DNA of 64,000 bases from Oceanobacter kriegii DSM 6294 (GTDB lineage: Bacteria; Pseudomonadota; Gammaproteobacteria; Pseudomonadales; Oceanobacteraceae). The translations under genes were made by a program, and so were the position numbers. Under the pieces are notes generated by a model. That model was not told where the DNA came from and did no database searches. It was given only the letters and a program-made list of their open reading frames with translations. Position 1 is the first letter of the stretch. Each line of letters starts with the position of its first letter. Below, one piece after another: positions 14,417-22,009 of the stretch. The DNA lies in the NCBI RefSeq assembly GCF_000422845.1, contig NZ_AUGV01000017.1, positions 1-64,000 of the forward strand, written 5' to 3'.

Positions 14417-16594
14417 ATGACTGGATACGTTCAGAAGGGTGGCATTCAAATCGCCCAAGCCCTGTATGACTTCGTAAATGAAAAGGCAATTCCCGGCACT
14501 GGCGTAAACGCCGATGTCTTCTGGGCTGAATTCGACACCATCGTCAACGAGCTGGCCCCGAAAAACCGTGCCTTGCTGGAAAAACGCGATGACCTGCAAG
14601 CCAAAATCGACGCTTACCACACCGAGCGTAAAGGCACTGCGCACAACGCAGACGAGTACAAGGCGTTCTTGCAAGACATTGGTTACCTGTTGCCACAAGC
14701 CGACGATTTCCAGGCCACGACTGAAAACGTAGAGCCTGAAATCGGTACTATGGCCGGTCCACAGCTGGTGGTTCCGGTAATGAATGCACGCTTTGCATTG
14801 AACGCCGCCAATGCGCGCTGGGGTTCTTTGTACGACGCTCTGTATGGTACTAACGTACTGTCTGAAGACGGCGGTGCGGAAAAGACCAAAGAATACAACC
14901 CGGCCCGTGGTGCCAAGGTGATCGCCTACGCTCGCGACGTATTGGATCAGGCTGCTCCATTGGCTGCCGGCTCCCATGCTGATAGCACGGGCTACAGCAT
15001 TGCCAGCGGTGCATTGGTTGTCACCCTCAAAGACGGCTCGACCACCGGCCTGGCCAATCAGGAGCAACTGAAAGGCTACAACGGTGAAGCAGAAGCACCG
15101 ACGGCTATCTTGTTGCAAAACAACGGCTTGCACCTGGAAGTTCAGGTTGATGCCAGCTCACAAATTGGTGCAACCGACCCGGCAGGTATCAAAGACATTC
15201 TGGTTGAGTCGGCCCTGACCACCATTATGGACTGTGAAGACTCCGTTGCTGCCGTAGACGCTGAAGACAAGGTCATTACCTACAGCAACTGGCTGGGCCT
15301 GATGCGTGGCGACCTGCAAGAATCCGTAACCAAAGGCGGCCAAACCTTCACCCGTACCATGAACCCGGATCGTGAATACACCGGTCTGTACGGCGAAACC
15401 GTGAAGCTGAAAGGCCGCTCCATGCTGTTCATTCGTAATGTTGGTCACCTGATGACTAACCCGGCGATGCTGGACGCCAACGGCAATGAAGTACCGGAAG
15501 GCATCATGGACGCCATGGTGACCACGCTGTGTGCTATGCACGACCTGAAAGGCAACGCGCCATTCAAGAACAGCACCACCGGTTCTGTGAACATTGTTAA
15601 GCCAAAAATGCACGGTCCTGAAGAAGTGGCGTTCGCCAACGAACTGTTTGGCCGTGTAGAAGATGCACTGGGTCTGCCACGCTTCACCATGAAGATGGGT
15701 ATCATGGACGAAGAACGTCGTACCACCGTGAACCTGGGCCGTTGTATCGAAGCAGCAAAAGACCGCGTTGTGTTTATCAACACCGGCTTCCTGGATCGCA
15801 CGGGTGACGAAATTCATACCTCCATGCTGGCTGGTCCTTTCGTACCAAAAACCATCATGAAGCAGCAGCTGTGGATCAACAGCTATGAAAACTGGAACGT
15901 CGACACCGGTCTGAAATACGGCCTGCAAGGTCGCTCCCAGATCGGTAAGGGCATGTGGCCAATTCCGGATGAAATGGGCCAGATGATGGAGCAGAAAATC
16001 GGCCATCCAAAAGCCGGTGCCAACACGGCGTGGGTTCCATCACCAACCGCCGCTACCTTGCACGCACTGCATTACCATCAGGTAAACGTGTTTGCCGTAC
16101 AGGAAGAGCTGAAACAGCGTCAGTTTGCCTCTGTTGACGACATCCTGACCATCCCGCTGATGACTGAAGAGCAGAAAGCGGCGCTGACCGAAGAGCAAAT
16201 TCAACGTGAAATCGACAACAACTGTCAGGGCATCCTCGGTTACGTTGTGCGCTGGATTGACCAGGGCGTTGGTTGTTCCAAAGTGCCAGACATCAACAAC
16301 GTTGGCCTGATGGAAGACCGCGCGACCCTGCGTATTTCTTCCCAGCACGTGGCTAACTGGCTGGAGCACGGCATCTGTACCCGTGAACAGGTAGAAGATA
16401 GCCTCAAGCGCATGGCCGCTGTTGTAGATGGCCAGAACGCCGGTGATGCTGCGTACATCAACATGGCTCCAGGCTTTGACGGCATTGCTTTCAAAGCTGC
16501 CTCTGACCTGATCTTCAAGGGTAAAGAGCAGCCAAGTGGTTACACCGAGCCACTGCTGCACGCTTACCGCCTGAAGTTCAAAGCGGCTCAGTAA
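14417..16594 (+). CDS. glcB: Malate synthase G
   Basis: Condenses glyoxylate with acetyl-CoA to form malate, enabling growth on acetate, glycolate or fatty acids. The 725-residue length matches isoform G (E. coli 723). Typical segments are [31 protein letters not shown] and the C-terminal [14 protein letters not shown]. The glycolate oxidase genes often found beside glcB are not here. GAGAGG lies 7 nt before the ATG. It is monocistronic with a terminator. Confidence 0.97.
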
Positions 16595-16647
16595 GTCACT
16601 TCAAGTTGTTGCAGGGGCGGGTGATCTACCCGTACCCCTGAACACTC

Positions 16648-16683
16648 AAAAAACCCGATCAGTGAAAGCTGGTCGGGTTTTTT
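16648..16683 (+). terminator. glcB terminator
   Basis: AAAAAACCCGATCAG pairs with CTGGTCGGGTTTTTT (one G-T pair) across a 6-nt loop, followed by a T run. It lies 53 bp after the glcB stop. Confidence 0.9.
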
Positions 16684-16867
16684 AATGAACGCCATTTCAA
16701 ATCGAGATGTGGCAATGCGATGCATCAGTATTTGCGTGTTTTTGAGCCAAATTACATCAATGGCGAGTTTGTAATGGGCTGTTGAATTGCTGATCAGTAA
16801 CGACTTCTTTACTGTATAAGATTATCAGTGGAAACACGGGCATTTGTCCGAACAAGGAGGTTTTCCC

Positions 16868-18160
16868 GTGCTCAAGTCCCGAGATGAATGCAAACCCTGG
16901 CTAGCCGTATTCACCAGTAGCGTATTGGCGCTGGTTTTGGTGGGTTGCGGTGGTGAAACCCCTCATCGGGATTCCGCAGACGGCGACGGAAATGCGGCTG
17001 AACAGACGGGGTCTGATACCGACACTGAAACAGATACCGGTGGCGATACGGACAGCGGCTCGGACGCTGGTGATACCGACGCGTCTGATCCTGATACCGA
17101 TACTGGTACTGATACTGATACTGGTACTGATACTGATACTGATACTGATAACAGTGACTCAGATACGGACAGCGGCTCAGATAGCGATGTCGAGACAGAC
17201 CCCGTTACCGAACCCGAGCCAGACGTAAATCCGGCGCCGGGCAATTATCCTGAAATTACCGTTCTGGCGGGCTCCACCGCCACCGTTGAATCAAATTATC
17301 GCGTTTACCTGCAAGCCAACACCGCGGACGACAGCATTGCCTATCAATGGTTTTTAACGTCTGGCAGTCTGGTTGAAATATCGGGGGCGCAAACCGCATT
17401 GGCGTCGTTCATTAGCCCGCTGGTTGATGCCCGAACAGAATATCGCTTTACGCTCACGGAAACCTCTGACGGCGTGACATCTACTGTGACCACCATCTAC
17501 GTGGTGCCAGAAGCCGAAGCGGTGACAGCGGCCGAAGGCATATCGGCATCTGGCGTTACGCGTGGTGCTAACTACCCGACGGGCATCAACAGCGACTGCA
17601 CCGGCGAAACCATTGCCTATCAGGATTGTTATCGCGCCGGCGAAGGGTCGTCGGCCAGCTCACGTTTCACCAAACTGGACAATAACGGCAATGCATTGAC
17701 TGCCGGAGCCTCGGAGTGGGCGTGCGTAAAAGACGAATTGACCGGGCTGGTGTGGGAGAAGAAAACCCGCGATGGCAGCCTGCGGGACAAGGATTCCAAC
17801 TCTTATCAATGGGGCGGAGGCGCTGGCACTGACGTGGTTGGTTCCTCATGGGATGAGCTGCAGACCCTGCTCAATACCGATCAGGTGTGTGGCTTTGATA
17901 ACTGGCGAGTACCCAGTCGCCGGGAGCTGGTGGGCCTGGTCGACTATGGGGTTACCCGCCCTGTGATTAATGAGGATTACTTCCCCAATACGGCGTCCAA
18001 GCATTACTGGACCATGAATCGAGGTGTGTCTGGCATGCCTTGGGCGGTAGATTTCGACACCGGCGCACTGAGTCAGATTTCGTCTACCAGTGAGGAGCGA
18101 GTTCGCATGGTCGCGACGCCTGCGGTTGAATCAGGGGCGGAATCAGGGGAGACGCTCTAA
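16868..18160 (+). CDS. DUF1566 (Lcl C-terminal) lipoprotein with Asp-Thr-rich linker
   Basis: A 430-residue exported protein. The GTG at 16868 is preferred because AAGGAGG lies 7 nt upstream; it yields a signal peptide ending in the lipobox LVGC (C27). A long, low-complexity Asp/Thr/Ser/Gly linker (about 45-130, with Asp-Thr repeats at 76-95) projects the rest from the membrane. An Ig-like segment (about 135-220) follows, then a C-terminal DUF1566 domain (TGLVWEKKTRDG, FDNWRVPSRRELVGLVDYG, YWTMNRG). DUF1566 domains are common in surface or periplasmic proteins and their ligand is unknown. Its stop codon overlaps the start of a second DUF1566 gene. Confidence 0.8.
   Translation: MLKSRDECKPWLAVFTSSVLALVLVGCGGETPHRDSADGDGNAAEQTGSDTDTETDTGGDTDSGSDAGDTDASDPDTDTGTDTDTGTDTDTDTDNSDSDTDSGSDSDVETDPVTEPEPDVNPAPGNYPEITVLAGSTATVESNYRVYLQANTADDSIAYQWFLTSGSLVEISGAQTALASFISPLVDARTEYRFTLTETSDGVTSTVTTIYVVPEAEAVTAAEGISASGVTRGANYPTGINSDCTGETIAYQDCYRAGEGSSASSRFTKLDNNGNALTAGASEWACVKDELTGLVWEKKTRDGSLRDKDSNSYQWGGGAGTDVVGSSWDELQTLLNTDQVCGFDNWRVPSRRELVGLVDYGVTRPVINEDYFPNTASKHYWTMNRGVSGMPWAVDFDTGALSQISSTSEERVRMVATPAVESGAESGETL
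17093..17152 (+). repeat. Hexanucleotide microsatellite coding Asp-Thr repeats
   Basis: Ten head-to-tail hexamers, mostly GATACT with GGTACT variants, encode the (D/G)-T-rich linker of the DUF1566 lipoprotein. The 6-bp period keeps the frame, so slippage would change linker length without inactivating the gene. Confidence 0.85.
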
Positions 18161-18840
18161 TGGGCCATATCATGTCGTCATCACGCCACACTTCGATTTA
18201 TATACGTCGTGTACGCCTTCAGGCCAAACTGCTGCCAACCAGGCTTTCGAATACCTCGCTGATTGTGGCGTCGCTTTGTTTGCCATCAATTCCGGTACAA
18301 GCTGCCCAGCTATGCCTCGATGAGACAACCATGGTGCGTGTAACGGCTGAGCAGGAAAATCTGTGCAATGGCAATGTTGTGGATCAGCGTACCGGCTTGA
18401 TGTGGGCAGCATGTGACGCGGGCTTGGCAGGCAATGGTTGTGAAACTGGTAGCGTAGAGCTGAAGAACTGGCAGCAGGCACTGCAATACGTCGAGTCACT
18501 GAATGTGTCCGGGGGCTTGAACGGTTTTAGCGACTGGCGTCTGCCCTCCATCAAGGAATTGAACGCATTGACGGAGCCTGCCTGTATCAACCCGAGTTAT
18601 TCCTTGCAGGCCTTCACTGACCAAACCGACTTTACTCCCGAAAAGCGCTGGTGGACGGCAACCCCAGCGATGCTGACCAGCGAGCAGCTGGAAGAAGGCG
18701 TTACAACGTCTGCGGACGGTTTTAGCTGGGCCTTGGATTCGGCATCCGGGGCAATTGCCGCAGCGCCAAGAACGGATGCGCTAAGGGTGCGACTGGTTAG
18801 AACCACTTACAGCTACGACGCTGAAAGCTCGTGCCGGTAG
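18160..18840 (+). CDS. Exported DUF1566 (Lcl C-terminal) protein
   Basis: A 226-residue protein with a long Sec signal (basic residues to about 28, hydrophobic 33-45, probable AQA-type cleavage near 48) and a single DUF1566 domain: TGLMWAACDAG, NGFSDWRLPSIKELNAL, RWWTATPA and LRVRLVR at the end. Several cysteines (CLDE, CDAG, CETG, CINP, SSCR) suggest disulfides in the periplasm or outside. Its ATG overlaps the stop of the preceding DUF1566 gene (TAATG) and GGGGAG lies 8 nt upstream, so the pair is translationally coupled and probably acts together. The start at 18172 is an alternative. Confidence 0.78.
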   Translation: MGHIMSSSRHTSIYIRRVRLQAKLLPTRLSNTSLIVASLCLPSIPVQAAQLCLDETTMVRVTAEQENLCNGNVVDQRTGLMWAACDAGLAGNGCETGSVELKNWQQALQYVESLNVSGGLNGFSDWRLPSIKELNALTEPACINPSYSLQAFTDQTDFTPEKRWWTATPAMLTSEQLEEGVTTSADGFSWALDSASGAIAAAPRTDALRVRLVRTTYSYDAESSCR

Positions 18841-18845
18841 GACAC

Positions 18846-18873
18846 TTGATACTGTTTATTTATACAGTATCTT
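18846..18873 (+). promoter_or_regulatory. Candidate SOS-controlled promoter facing right
   Basis: TTGATA (18846-18851) and TATCTT (18868-18873) are spaced by 16 bp, and LexA box 1 fills the spacer exactly. A transcript from here would run antisense to the 21-codon ORF at 18923-18988. Confidence 0.45.
18851..18870. promoter_or_regulatory. LexA-type SOS box 1
   Basis: ACTGT and ACAGT half-sites in a CTG-N10-CAG palindrome with an A/T-rich core, the gammaproteobacterial LexA operator pattern. It is identical over 20 bp to box 2 at 19053. It lies 10 bp after a DUF1566 stop codon, so it cannot serve that gene and should control rightward transcription into 18874 onward. Confidence 0.65.
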
Positions 18874-18907
18874 GAGAGTTTTACGCCGCCAGTCATTTTT
18901 CCGAAGG

Positions 18908-18999
18908 TTGTTCAAAAGATGATCAGATGACGTAGCCACGCAGTAAATACAGTGCGTGAAGGTAGATTTTTATCGTTATAAAGAGCATTTTTTGAACAA
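18908..18999. repeat. 10-bp inverted repeat bracketing the small hydrophobic ORF
   Basis: TTGTTCAAAA at 18908-18917 is the exact reverse complement of TTTTGAACAA at 18990-18999. In a minus-strand RNA the arms would pair around the 22-codon frame and could close the translation start. Confidence 0.7.
18923..18988 (-). CDS. Candidate 21-residue hydrophobic peptide under SOS control
   Basis: On the minus strand an ATG opens a 22-codon frame whose product begins MLFITIKIYLHALYLLRG. It is almost entirely hydrophobic with Lys7, His11 and Arg17, as in membrane-inserting peptide toxins such as TisB or DinQ. LexA box 2 and a promoter-like pair lie 65-100 bp upstream. The inverted repeat TTGTTCAAAA/TTTTGAACAA brackets the frame, its arms one base before the start codon and five bases after the stop. 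There is no Shine-Dalgarno. The frame is open upstream to a GTG at 19054, so a 43-residue product is possible. Coding status is unproven. Confidence 0.35.
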   Translation of the reverse strand: MLFITIKIYLHALYLLRGYVI

Positions 19000-19052
19000 T
19001 TTTCAGGCGGGTCTTCTGAATATATGCCCAATTTCTCGGGGTGTCTAAAAGC

Positions 19053-19072
19053 ACTGTTTATTTATACAGTAT
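19053..19072. promoter_or_regulatory. LexA-type SOS box 2
   Basis: A second, identical copy of the CTG-N10-CAG palindrome, 202 bp from box 1. It overlaps the -10 of a leftward promoter-like pair. The gene to its right (ending at 19106) is transcribed toward it, so the box can only control leftward transcription or a very short rightward RNA. Confidence 0.65.
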
Positions 19073-19088
19073 TTAGATGCAGGGTAAA
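19061..19088 (-). promoter_or_regulatory. Candidate SOS-controlled promoter facing left
   Basis: On the minus strand TTTACC (complement of 19083-19088) and TATAAA (complement of 19061-19066) are 16 bp apart, with the -10 inside LexA box 2. The predicted start is near 19053, about 65 nt before the ATG of the small hydrophobic ORF. Confidence 0.5.
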
Positions 19089-19105
19089 GGCTGGGGGATT
19101 ACAGG

Positions 19106-19813
19106 TCAGCCGCCGTTATCGCGTCTTTCTATCTCGCCTCGTACTGCATCCATCTTAAGCAGGGCATCCTCTATCTCCTGCATCACCTCCGCAGCAATAG
19201 GTTTAATCCCTTCCAGTTGCGCTTTATCTTGTTCAATCATGGTCAGAGCGAACTTGCTGTACTCATCTGGAGTTAATCGGTAGTGGGCAAGGAAGTGACT
19301 CATGCTGGCGTTGACCGTGTTTACGTAGTCAGTAGTTTGGAGGTTCTCGTACTTGACCTGAAAGGATTGGTAGACAGAGGCTGAAAAAACAATAAACGCG
19401 CCATAACACGCCATTGTATTCCCGCTGAATCTGGCAGTGATTGATGGCGGGATGATTTGCCTGCTGAAAAAGTCATTCACCTTGGCTCCATGGATGGAAT
19501 ACATGTACAGGATCAATACGGCAGAAAATATAGCCAAAGAGAGCTCAGTTCCAACCACAAGAGAAGAAACCTCGAGTTTTGCGCTAACAACACCACCTGC
19601 CGGTGTGATCATTTCCAGAGTTGCGGAATATCCAAGCAACAGAACAAAAAAATGCCCCAATACTTTCAGTATGAATTGAGCCTCTTTGAGTCTGAATAGC
19701 ACACCTGCCAGCAGTCCGAGCGGCAGAAGGATGCTCATTAACCCATTGTCATTGCTGCCAAGTATCGCGTAGGCGATTAAAGCGATAACGGCGATGGACA
19801 GTTTTTTTGGCAT
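19106..19813 (-). CDS. Multi-spanning membrane protein of unknown function
   Basis: A 235-residue protein not recognised from any family. The first ~160 residues contain about five hydrophobic spans (for example 6-20, 23-41, 50-62, 84-105, 137-148), with a charged cytoplasmic tail rich in Lys/Glu that probably forms a helical or coiled region (PIAAEVMQEIEDALLKMDAVRGEIERR). The Shine-Dalgarno is weak. The region is visibly richer in A+T than flanking core genes, and this is the last of four minus-strand small genes between the SOS boxes and sseA, which suggests horizontally acquired or cassette DNA. Confidence 0.55.
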   Translation of the reverse strand: MPKKLSIAVIALIAYAILGSNDNGLMSILLPLGLLAGVLFRLKEAQFILKVLGHFFVLLLGYSATLEMITPAGGVVSAKLEVSSLVVGTELSLAIFSAVLILYMYSIHGAKVNDFFSRQIIPPSITARFSGNTMACYGAFIVFSASVYQSFQVKYENLQTTDYVNTVNASMSHFLAHYRLTPDEYSKFALTMIEQDKAQLEGIKPIAAEVMQEIEDALLKMDAVRGEIERRDNGG

Positions 19814-19881
19814 CCGTTAGCCCCGAAAAATAGTAGTGGCAATAGTGAAACTGAATCTGGTGAGCCCAGGGCTGAGAATTG

Positions 19882-19902
19882 GGCAGCCTTGTTATGGCTG
19901 CC
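19882..19902. repeat. Small hairpin between two accessory ORFs
   Basis: GGCAGCC and GGCTGCC pair perfectly around TTGTTAT. There is no T run, so it is not an evident terminator. It lies in the 150-bp gap between the ORFs at 19106-19813 and 19964-20266, where no further gene is seen. Confidence 0.5.
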
Positions 19903-19963
19903 ATGGGTAGACCCCGAAGGCTGCAACTAAAACAACGGCAACCATGACCATGACAGGCAACCC

Positions 19964-20266
19964 TCATTTCCGGCTTTTACTCTCTTCCATAAGATCGACA
20001 CTCTTCAATGGCTCAATTTTTAAGTCGATGAGATAAAGTACGAAGGTTATGGAGAGGAATGCTGCTGTGGCAATCGGGAGATATGCGAGCAACAGAAAAA
20101 ACAAAGCCAGGAAAAGGATTCCCACACGGTCGATGAACAAAACTTTCCACGGGAGCGCTGCTTTTGGGTGTTCCCGGTATACCTGAGCACCGCAGCATTC
20201 ACAGGCAAACTGAAAAGGCCCCGATACGAAAAACGACTTGATGCGGCTTAGTTTGTGTTGGCACAT
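19964..20266 (-). CDS. Small zinc-ribbon-like membrane protein, function unknown
   Basis: A 100-residue protein that starts MCQH and has a CECC cluster at about 23-26, suggesting a small metal-binding head. A hydrophobic hairpin follows (RVGILFLALFFLLLAYLP and a second span FLSITFVLYLIDL), with a charged tail ending KSRK. No family is recognised. There is no clear Shine-Dalgarno. It lies in the A+T-richer accessory block; the next upstream gene ends in an attC-like hairpin 15 bp before its start. Confidence 0.5.
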   Translation of the reverse strand: MCQHKLSRIKSFFVSGPFQFACECCGAQVYREHPKAALPWKVLFIDRVGILFLALFFLLLAYLPIATAAFLSITFVLYLIDLKIEPLKSVDLMEESKSRK

Positions 20267-20280
20267 GATCTAAAGCCACC

Positions 20281-20335
20281 ATAACGGCCTGGGCAATGGC
20301 GCTCTTTGCAGAGTGATGCTGCCTTTACTCGTTAT
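20281..20335. repeat. attC-like hairpin (55 bp)
   Basis: Outer arms ATAACG/CGTTAT are separated by unpaired 5- and 6-nt spacers from an inner imperfect 14-bp stem (GGCA...CTCT with AGAG...TGCC) and a TTGC loop. This outer box, unpaired spacer, inner box and terminal loop order is the architecture of integron attC sites, and AAC/GTT are present at the ends. The full GTTRRRY core is not matched, so identification is tentative. It includes the stop codon of the ORF at 20325-20645. Confidence 0.4.
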
Positions 20336-20645
20336 CACTTTGGATGCGCTCATAGTTACGTATGGCCTCTTCGCACTTCGGCAAATCGCAATGGTCTTGA
20401 AGAATGTATACCAGCGTCTCCACAGATTTAGAAATTTTCGAACTGGTCTGAGTGACTTCACCTGACGTTAATAGCATCTGAACTTCTGTAAGAACCTGAA
20501 GTTGATAGATGGTGTTGTCTGAAAGTGTTTCTTCGACGATAGCACCTGACTCTTGATCAATATGCCTGTTGATTTCAACTGAGCCCAAATATCCTATGGC
20601 TGAAATAATCAGAAAGCCTGCCACTACTAATGAGATTAATTTCAT
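20325..20645 (-). CDS. Small single-span or secreted protein, function unknown
   Basis: A 106-residue protein with an N-terminal hydrophobic segment (ISLVVAGFLIISAIGYLG, signal anchor or signal peptide) and a soluble helical remainder with two cysteines (DHCDLPKCEE) that could form a disulfide. No family recognised. AGGG lies 5 nt before the ATG. It sits between two attC-like hairpins and on the same strand as its neighbours, like an integron cassette gene. Confidence 0.5.
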   Translation of the reverse strand: MKLISLVVAGFLIISAIGYLGSVEINRHIDQESGAIVEETLSDNTIYQLQVLTEVQMLLTSGEVTQTSSKISKSVETLVYILQDHCDLPKCEEAIRNYERIQSDNE

Positions 20646-20666
20646 TTAGCCCTGTGGCCTCTGATG

Positions 20667-20731
20667 AATTAAGCGCCTCAACAACCGGCTACGCTTTGCT
20701 GTACCCGGTGCCAAAAGGCGCTTGGTTAATT
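20667..20731. repeat. attC-like extended hairpin (65 bp)
   Basis: A long imperfect palindrome: AATT/AATT outermost with a 4-nt bulge, AAGCGCCT/AGGCGCTT (8 bp perfect), ACCGG/CCGGT, TAC/GTA and an 8-nt loop. It lies between the stop of one small gene and the start of the next. In the gene-sense strand it begins TTAACCAAGCGCCT, which resembles the left arm of Vibrio-type attC repeats, but the expected GTT at the far end is CTT. It lacks a T run, so it is not a typical terminator. Confidence 0.4.
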
Positions 20732-20746
20732 GACTTGTTGAACCTA

Positions 20747-21037
20747 TCACTCGGTGCCTACTTGATTGAAGAAGTAGCCCCACTCTGGGTCGTATTCAGT
20801 CCCAACATCTATTAGGCATATGCCGGTCTCTTGAGGCGCGTTATGCAGTCTTTCTGCGAAGACTTCCGTTGATAAACAGTACCAGACCCATGCCCTATAT
20901 CCACCGGTTGTAATTGCTGCTTCCAATACACCTGACAAGTCAGATTCCAGTGCTTCTATAAAGGCAATTTTCGAAAATTCCCATGCTGAGGCTGTCGTGC
21001 TACATGGTCTGCTCTCACACGTTCTGCTTGTAGCCAC
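20747..21037 (-). pseudogene. N-terminally truncated DUF695-like gene
   Basis: The 96-residue frame contains, from about residue 25, a segment resembling the C-terminal half of DUF695 proteins (IEALESDLSGVLEAAITT, YRAWVWYC and DPEWGYFF near the end). The expected first half is missing. A stop codon lies directly before the first possible start (GTG at 21037) and only 70 bp remain before sseA. The gene was probably cut at the island boundary. Expression as a short domain cannot be excluded. An attC-like hairpin follows its stop. Confidence 0.45.
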
Positions 21038-21107
21038 TTAGCCGGTAATGTTGTCTCGCGCCAATTTTTGCAGGTATAACTTTCTATCCGCACTCCGAGG
21101 AGCTGTT

Positions 21108-21959
21108 ATGGAATCGCCACTTGTTTCTACCGCCTGGCTGGCGGCCAATCTTCAAAACGACAAGCTGATCTTGCTGGATGGCAGTATGGAGAGCGTGCTT
21201 GGCAAGGAGCCAATTGTTTACGACAGCCCTTGTTTTATTCCGGGTAGTCAAAAATTCGATCTGGAGGCTGTTTTTCTGGATGCTTCCGCGAGCCAGCCGC
21301 TGGCCTTTCCGACGGCCGAGATTTTTGCGGAGGCGATAAAGCCGTTTGGCATTCAGTCGGATTCAGTGGTGGTGATTTACGATAACCAGGGCATCTATTC
21401 AGCACCACGAGCCTGGTGGATATTCCGTACCATGGGCATCGAACAGGTGTTCGTGCTGGATGGTGGTTTGCCGCAGTGGCTGGAAGAAAAGCATGAGGTG
21501 TCGGATTCACTGGATGCTGTTGAGCCAAAAGCGCATTCCGGTGTGTCGGTCGTCTACAACGACCGTCAGGTGTGCAGTTGTGATCAATTGCTGGCTCAGT
21601 TAAACAACCCGGATGTCGCTATTCTGGATGCCCGCGGCAAGGCTCGTTTTCTGGGTGAAGTACCAGAACCGCGCCCGGGTGTACGGCCAGGCCATATTCC
21701 CGGTGCGGTGAACCTGCCGTTTGGTCAGTTACTCAATGGTCATAAGTTTAAAACCAAAGCTGAGCTGCAACCGTTGTTTGCTGATCTAATCTCCAATCCT
21801 GACCAGAAACTGGTGTTTTCCTGTGGCTCGGGTATCACGGCTTGTATTGCCTTGCTGGCAGCGGTCGTTTCGGGGGCGGTTGCGAGTTATTCAAATCTGG
21901 CGTTGTACGATGGCTCGTGGGCGGAGTGGGGCAGTAACCCGGGCTTGCCGATTGAGTAG
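21108..21959 (+). CDS. sseA: 3-mercaptopyruvate sulfurtransferase (two-domain rhodanese)
   Basis: Transfers sulfur from 3-mercaptopyruvate (or a related donor) to thiol acceptors or cyanide. The 283-residue protein has two rhodanese domains: an inactive N-terminal one (about 5-130) and a catalytic C-terminal one (about 150-283) with active-site C239 in CGSGITAC, the loop typical of mercaptopyruvate rather than thiosulfate sulfurtransferases. The ATG at 21108 follows GAGGAG with 5-nt spacing and replaces a longer frame. It is a single gene with a terminator. Confidence 0.9.
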   Translation: MESPLVSTAWLAANLQNDKLILLDGSMESVLGKEPIVYDSPCFIPGSQKFDLEAVFLDASASQPLAFPTAEIFAEAIKPFGIQSDSVVVIYDNQGIYSAPRAWWIFRTMGIEQVFVLDGGLPQWLEEKHEVSDSLDAVEPKAHSGVSVVYNDRQVCSCDQLLAQLNNPDVAILDARGKARFLGEVPEPRPGVRPGHIPGAVNLPFGQLLNGHKFKTKAELQPLFADLISNPDQKLVFSCGSGITACIALLAAVVSGAVASYSNLALYDGSWAEWGSNPGLPIE

Positions 21960-22009
21960 TGGCAGGTTCATTTAATACTACAGCGAAAGGCCGCTGTGTT
22001 TCAGGCATA

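What the first reader, a model, noticed from the sequence alone, without database searches (positions are those of the whole stretch)
18846..19088. Two convergent LexA-type boxes around a 21-codon hydrophobic ORF: possible SOS toxin/antisense locus
Identical CTG-N10-CAG palindromes at 18851 and 19053 overlap promoter-like elements pointing at each other. The leftward transcript would carry a 22-codon frame for a hydrophobic peptide (MLFITIKIYLHALYLLRG...). A 10-bp inverted repeat brackets the frame, as if to hide its start. The rightward transcript would be fully antisense. Known SOS type I loci (tisB/istR, dinQ/agr) share the LexA control, tiny membrane peptide and antisense RNA, but I know of none with two identical boxes facing inward. 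No annotated neighbour explains either box.
Basis: partly seen in the sequence, partly recalled or inferred. Interest (0 to 1): 0.78.

Follow-up and report, generated by a model that had tools for sequence, protein, structure and literature searches.

The report
Paired LexA boxes around hairpin RNA

Summary
In detail: identical LexA boxes (18850-18869, 19052-19071) lie in a 265-bp gap between two convergent genes. With up to 2 mismatches to a strong-box pattern the genome has 4 sites: these two, dinB and imuA. Promoter-like elements face inward; the 21-codon frame and its 10-bp inverted repeat are real.

The toxin reading is weak. The frame has no Shine-Dalgarno, and frames as long and hydrophobic appear in 33 of 2000 shuffles. 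A genus-mate, G005, has a box pair 182 bp apart in the matching ubiA-glcB interval but no such frame.

What stands out is the other strand. The rightward RNA forms a 19-bp uninterrupted helix (0 of 1000 shuffles reach it), whereas the leftward RNA reaches 10 bp (186 of 1000). The predicted rightward RNA folds at z -3.02.

Best reading, about 45%: a LexA-repressed, SOS-induced structured small RNA starting near 18880, perhaps opposed by a second LexA-linked promoter. Main rival: operators left behind by, or serving, a gene no longer there. No terminator was found, the interior is not conserved, and nothing was measured.

The parts
18850..18869 (.). LexA box 1, TACTGTTTATTTATACAGTA, 0 mismatches to TACTGTWTWNWNAWACAGTA
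   Evidence: same 20-mer upstream of imuA (C15:90250)
19052..19071 (.). LexA box 2, CACTGTTTATTTATACAGTA, 1 mismatch
18846..18873 (+). Rightward promoter-like element TTGATA-16-TATCTT with LexA box 1 in its spacer
   Evidence: 17 of 1000 flank shuffles score as high
18880..19050 (+). Predicted SOS-induced structured RNA (5' end inferred from the promoter, 3' end unknown; no terminator found)
   Evidence: -47.0 kcal/mol, z -3.02, 0 of 200 shuffles as stable; no terminator-like site in 18600-19400
18903..18921 (+). 5' arm of the 19-bp uninterrupted helix (G-U pairs allowed)
18986..19004 (+). 3' arm of the 19-bp helix
19019..19047 (-). Leftward promoter-like element TAGACA-17-TATATT, 4 nt inside box 2
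   Evidence: (10 of 12 matches)
19061..19088 (-). Alternative leftward promoter-like element TTTACC-16-TATAAA overlapping box 2
   Evidence: 73 of 1000 flank shuffles score as high
18923..18988 (-). 21-codon frame plus stop, MLFITIKIYLHALYLLRGYVI; probably not a gene
   Evidence: no Shine-Dalgarno
18160..18840 (+). Left neighbour, 226-aa Lcl_C domain protein, ends 9 bp before box 1
19106..19813 (-). Right neighbour, 235-aa orphan protein, hydrophobic by eye, convergent

Best explanation
The gap encodes an SOS-induced small structured RNA rather than a toxin peptide. LexA on box 1 covers the spacer of a rightward promoter. When DNA damage inactivates LexA, RNA starts near 18880 and folds into a hairpin of about 100 nt with a 19-bp stem. 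Box 2 lies beside an opposing promoter, so SOS would also release a leftward RNA complementary to it, or LexA on box 2 would block read-through in undamaged cells. Shown: the boxes, their match to the pattern, their position, the strand-specific helix. Inferred: LexA binding, transcription, the ends, and any base-pairing function.
For: Two of the 4 sites that match the strong-box pattern within 2 mismatches lie here; the other two precede dinB and imuA (genes). The genome has a LexA with the LexA_DNA_bind domain. Of the best promoters overlapping the four boxes of the window and G005 pairs, the box 1 rightward one scores highest: 9.47, 17 of 1000 flank shuffles as good. The + RNA has a 19-bp helix, 0 of 1000 shuffles as long; of 1404 readings of 182-nt window tiles (both strands) 2 reach 19, this one and one that looks like an intrinsic terminator. 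The - RNA has 10 bp (186 of 1000). Predicted + RNA z -3.02. G005 has a box pair in the matching interval with its best box-overlapping promoters pointing the same way, at 61 and 111 of 1000 shuffles.
Against: No terminator-like site was found. The interior has no convincing match in 390 genomes of the order, and does not align with the G005 interior beyond shuffles: same orientation local 59 of 500 and global 30 of 500, opposite orientation 356 and 17 of 500. The G005 interior has no exceptional helix: 11 pairs, 35 of 100 shuffles, on the matching strand. The - RNA also folds better than shuffles (z -2.24, 1 of 200). The inner leftward promoter scores 11.02, above the rightward one. Rfam gives only a chance-level match, E 0.63.
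Confidence: 0.45

Rival explanations
1. The boxes are operators left behind by, or belonging to, a variable SOS gene that stood beside them. In G005 a box of the pair lies upstream of a 407-aa orphan gene that reads away from the pair; in the window the matching place has no such gene.
For: Flanking genes differ: none of the window genes between glcB and ubiA was found in the 7.7-8 kb fetched downstream of glcB in 5 genus-mates, and of 7 genus genomes only the own one and G005 have this ubiA. In G005 box A lies about 20-70 bp upstream of the 407-aa gene, depending on its start codon (the alternative start picked by eye). Interior sequence is not conserved.
Against: Nothing identifies the 407-aa protein as an SOS gene: no Pfam, NCBIfam, PHROG, PDB or plasmid match. 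Box 1 and box 2 are near-perfect rather than decayed. A strand-specific 19-bp helix is not expected in a relic. Whether the own genome holds a homologue of the 407-aa gene elsewhere was not tested.
Confidence: 0.28
2. SOS type I toxin-antitoxin locus: the leftward RNA encodes the 21-aa membrane peptide and the rightward RNA is its antisense antitoxin.
For: Inward promoters; GRAVY 1.48, and a frame as long and hydrophobic in only 33 of 2000 ATG shuffles; the inner leftward promoter scores 11.02 and would leave a leader of about 24 nt (inferred).
Against: No Shine-Dalgarno; no NCBIfam or Pfam match; no comparable frame in G005; both RNAs would be SOS-induced, unlike tisB/istR-1; the long helix is specific to the antisense strand.
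Confidence: 0.12
3. Relic of a chromosomal integron: LexA boxes of a lost integrase promoter and its attachment region.
For: A box pair lies upstream of a gene that reads like an integron integrase in L088 (by eye, no family search), and a genus-mate has a LexA box near a phage-integrase-family gene; window neighbours are variable.
Against: My simple scan for attC-like R''/R' pairs was empty in window 16000-22000 and in the G005 stretch; no integrase among the 8 neighbouring proteins scanned.
Confidence: 0.05

Closest known systems
IstR-2 / tisAB-istR locus (E. coli)
   Same: A LexA-controlled small RNA beside a second LexA-controlled transcript (PMC2826370, passages).
   Different: The Rfam scan gave no such family here (that Rfam holds an IstR family is recalled); no LexA-independent antitoxin promoter was identified; no supported peptide; two identical boxes flank the unit.
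dinQ / agrAB (E. coli)
   Same: SOS control, small membrane peptide and RNAs with antisense complementarity (PMC3567139, start of abstract in search listing).
   Different: The peptide candidate here lacks a Shine-Dalgarno and is not kept in the genus-mate locus; the antisense RNA would itself be under a LexA box.
DinR (Klebsiella), SOS small RNA
   Same: Lineage-restricted RNA produced under LexA control (PMC10907235, passages).
   Different: DinR is cut from the dinI mRNA 3' end; here there is no parent gene.
Predicted LexA-box-associated intergenic RNAs (113 candidate loci, PMC2527527)
   Same: Same kind of prediction: an RNA candidate with a putative LexA box (passages).
   Different: That survey reports association only; a paired inward arrangement is not mentioned in the passages seen.

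Membership tests
LexA-controlled small RNA locus | LexA box overlapping the promoter of the RNA | tested here: met
   Box 1 fills the spacer of TTGATA-16-TATCTT; sequence evidence only
LexA-controlled small RNA locus | RNA structure beyond chance | tested here: met
   19-bp + strand helix, 0 of 1000 shuffles; z -3.02
LexA-controlled small RNA locus | Defined 3' end or terminator | tested here: not met
   No terminator-like site in 18600-19400; Rho-dependent ends cannot be tested
LexA-controlled small RNA locus | SOS-induced transcript | not testable with these tools
   No RNA data available
LexA-controlled small RNA locus | Conservation of the RNA in relatives | tested here: not met
   No convincing interior match in 390 order genomes; G005 interior does not align beyond shuffles. 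Lineage-restricted RNAs exist, so this does not exclude the kind
SOS type I toxin-antitoxin (tisB/istR, dinQ/agr) | Small hydrophobic peptide frame | tested here: inconclusive
   GRAVY 1.48; 33 of 2000 ATG shuffles do as well; no Pfam or NCBIfam match
SOS type I toxin-antitoxin (tisB/istR, dinQ/agr) | Ribosome-binding site for the peptide | tested here: not met
   Upstream CTGAAAATTGTTCAAAAA has no Shine-Dalgarno; standby-type initiation cannot be excluded
SOS type I toxin-antitoxin (tisB/istR, dinQ/agr) | Frame kept in relatives that keep the boxes | tested here: not met
   G005 pair has no hydrophobic frame of this kind; one relative only, and orthology of the pair is inferred
SOS type I toxin-antitoxin (tisB/istR, dinQ/agr) | Antitoxin RNA present before SOS, independent of LexA | tested here: inconclusive
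   The best rightward promoter contains a LexA box; other promoters not excluded
Integron platform | attC sites or integrase gene | tested here: not met
   Simple attC scan empty; no integrase among 8 neighbouring proteins

The most novel reading that the evidence does not exclude
A damage-gated double-stranded RNA unit: two identical LexA operators release two converging promoters at once, so that SOS produces a pair of fully complementary RNAs of about 150 nt, one with a long hairpin. The product would be the duplex or its processed fragments, not a peptide, and the two-operator layout would be kept in the genus while the RNA sequence changes quickly.
Probability: 0.12. Interest if true: 0.65.

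Novelty: new variant of a known kind. Interest (0 to 1): 0.4.

Why it matters
[quoted passage not shown] Two of the four sites of this genome that fit a strong LexA box guard a stretch with no supported protein gene, so RNA sequencing after DNA damage would settle quickly whether SOS here makes a regulatory RNA.

Tried and rejected
Homologues of the interior: BLAST of 18876-19046 against 390 order genomes gave, besides the own genome, 14 genomes with weak hits of at most 46 bp, E 7.6e-4 or worse. Of their 14 loci, 12 have no LexA-like box within 4 mismatches; L073 has one about 1.2 kb from the hit and L078 a weak one about 170 bp away. With the boxes included (18840-19106) the best non-self hit in 35 relatives was the imuA promoter box of G005, 92% over 36-37 nt. 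Plasmids gave 133 records, none with a place covering 80% of the query, the best listed covering 15%; phages none; Rfam only a chance match.

Box pairs elsewhere: with a 165-195 gap only the own genome of 390 matched, but that sample lists only one of the six genus-mates, G004. With a 121-181 gap 0 of 390 matched; that range does not reach the window's own spacing, a planning slip. In the GTDB contig collection a stricter pattern gave 6 stretches, judged by eye: L084 looks like terminators, L088 lies upstream of an integrase-like gene, L087 and L089 lie between divergent genes, L085 and L086 were not resolved; no alignment to the window was run on them. Viral contigs gave 2, by eye one beside a DinI-like gene and one an assembly repeat; the hairpin-arm pattern gave 0. 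A looser pair pattern hit 11 of 113 relatives, with reversed-pattern control hits in 3. Own and G005 are two of the 11; of the other nine I read only G057, whose second site is not AT-rich, and judged the remaining eight from the listing alone.

Integron remnant: attC scan empty. Terminator mimicry: LexA-like palindromes can be terminators, as in L084, but neither window box is followed by a T run. imuAB leftover: imuA is present elsewhere with its own box. Interior alignment with G005: not significant. Promoter scores are a hand-made test: hexamer frequencies were recalled, not fetched, and known SOS genes score only 2.5-7.6 with it, so it ranks weakly.

Full report
What is there. Two LexA boxes with an identical 20-nt core lie 202 bp apart at 18850-18869 and 19052-19071. 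They sit in the gap between two convergent genes: an Lcl_C-domain protein ending at 18840 and a 235-aa protein without family ending at 19106. A search of the whole genome with up to 2 mismatches to TACTGTWTWNWNAWACAGTA gave 4 forward places, these two plus dinB and imuA, against 1 in the reversed-pattern control (genes). The 16-mer core with any centre is much less specific: 44 places against 29 control places in the genome, and in the window the one-mismatch pattern is no more frequent than in shuffles. The strength of the boxes, not the bare CTG-N10-CAG, is therefore the evidence. The genome encodes a LexA with the usual DNA-binding domain.

Promoters. A rightward element TTGATA-16-TATCTT holds box 1 in its spacer; a leftward element TAGACA-17-TATATT starts 4 nt inside box 2. 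In my own scoring the rightward one reaches 9.47 (17 of 1000 flank shuffles as good), a leftward one overlapping box 2 reaches 7.63 (73 of 1000), and the inner leftward one 11.02. Outward promoters score 2.21 and 5.16. Facing-inward promoters are thus plausible on both sides. Known SOS genes score poorly in the same test (2.5-7.6), so this is weak evidence.

The peptide. The frame at 18988-18923 has no Shine-Dalgarno and no NCBIfam or Pfam match. Shuffles of the 182-nt interior contain a frame of at least 21 codons with an equally hydrophobic segment in 33 of 2000 cases with ATG and 83 of 2000 with any start. It is mildly unusual but not persuasive.

The RNA. The + strand contains a helix of 19 consecutive pairs, 18903-18921 with 18986-19004, counting G-U pairs. 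None of 1000 dinucleotide shuffles reaches it (maximum 17). Of 1404 readings of window tiles (both strands) one other reaches 19, which by its sequence is a terminator. On the - strand the same place gives 10 consecutive pairs, reached by 186 of 1000 shuffles. The G-U pairs work only in the + strand RNA, so the structure points to the rightward transcript. The predicted RNA 18880-19050 folds at -47.0 kcal/mol, z -3.02, 0 of 200 shuffles; the opposite 171-nt RNA at -35.7, z -2.24, 1 of 200. The longer stretches gave z -2.23 (4 of 200) and -2.06 (6 of 200), so the energy difference between strands is modest and the helix length is the sharper sign.

Relatives. With the boxes included, the best non-self match in 35 relatives is only the box of the G005 imuA promoter; the interior alone has no convincing match in 390 genomes of the order. 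In five genus-mates glcB is present, but none of the window's genes up to ubiA was found in the 7.7-8 kb fetched downstream of it. One genus-mate, G005, has two LexA-like boxes (2 mismatches each) 182 bp apart. They lie on the contig that carries its glcB and its ubiA, about 3.5 kb from ubiA, against about 3.0 kb in the window. Since such boxes number 3 to 6 per genome, chance ones included, a pair in this interval is unlikely by chance, but I noticed the match after the fact and it rests on one genome. The G005 interior does not align with the window's (same orientation local 59 and global 30 of 500 shuffles; opposite orientation 356 and 17 of 500), has no exceptional helix (11 pairs, 35 of 100 shuffles; 7 pairs, 97 of 100) and no comparable hydrophobic frame. 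Its fold energies are z -1.61 and -2.17 on the two strands and -1.94 for a trimmed stretch, so there the strand preference is absent or reversed. Its two best box-overlapping promoters point in the window's + direction (61 and 111 of 1000 shuffles), and one box lies upstream of a 407-aa orphan gene. This supports the boxes and, weakly, the direction, removes support from the peptide, and also feeds the rival that the boxes belong to a neighbouring gene that differs between genomes.

Judgement. I rate an SOS-induced structured RNA most likely (0.45), leftover or neighbour-gene operators next (0.28), the toxin-antitoxin reading 0.12, an integron relic 0.05. The most novel reading not excluded is a LexA-gated pair of complementary RNAs.

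Literature. Full-text searches for six phrasings of a LexA- or SOS-dependent sRNA found 1 paper, and 'two LexA boxes' with 'small RNA' found none, in a library that lacks most subscription journals; broader searches are. PMC2527527 (passages) predicted 113 loci with LexA boxes; PMC10907235 (passages) describes DinR; PMC5963079 (passages) reports 28 non-coding RNAs raised by mitomycin C in Vibrio cholerae; PMC2826370 (passages) describes IstR-1 and IstR-2. For PMC3567139 (dinQ) I saw only the start of the abstract and a find without hits.

Noticed in passing
L107:5482-5683 (genus-mate G005): A second paired LexA-box locus, 182 bp apart, between a fatty-acid-hydroxylase-family gene and a 407-aa orphan gene.
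   Followed up: partly
L111:708-1535 (genus-mate G006): Phage-integrase-family gene, integron-integrase-like by eye, with a LexA-like box upstream: an SOS-controlled integron may exist in the genus.
   Followed up: no
L115 and L117 (genus-mates G004, G001): LexA-like boxes near the start of a gene that reads like a topoisomerase (by eye, MRLFIAEKPSLGRAIA), an unusual SOS candidate.
   Followed up: no
window 16844-18840: Two adjacent Lcl_C-domain proteins, the first with a long Asp-Thr/Ser-rich low-complexity stretch.
   Followed up: no
window 19106-20645: Three consecutive leftward genes without Pfam family; the 235-aa one has no match in the other genomes of a 35-genome set, in plasmids or in viral contigs.
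   Followed up: partly
L087:5638-5892 and L089:6292-6570: Two Shewanella contigs carry a similar small Cys-containing protein (by eye) next to LexA-box pairs between divergent genes.
   Followed up: no
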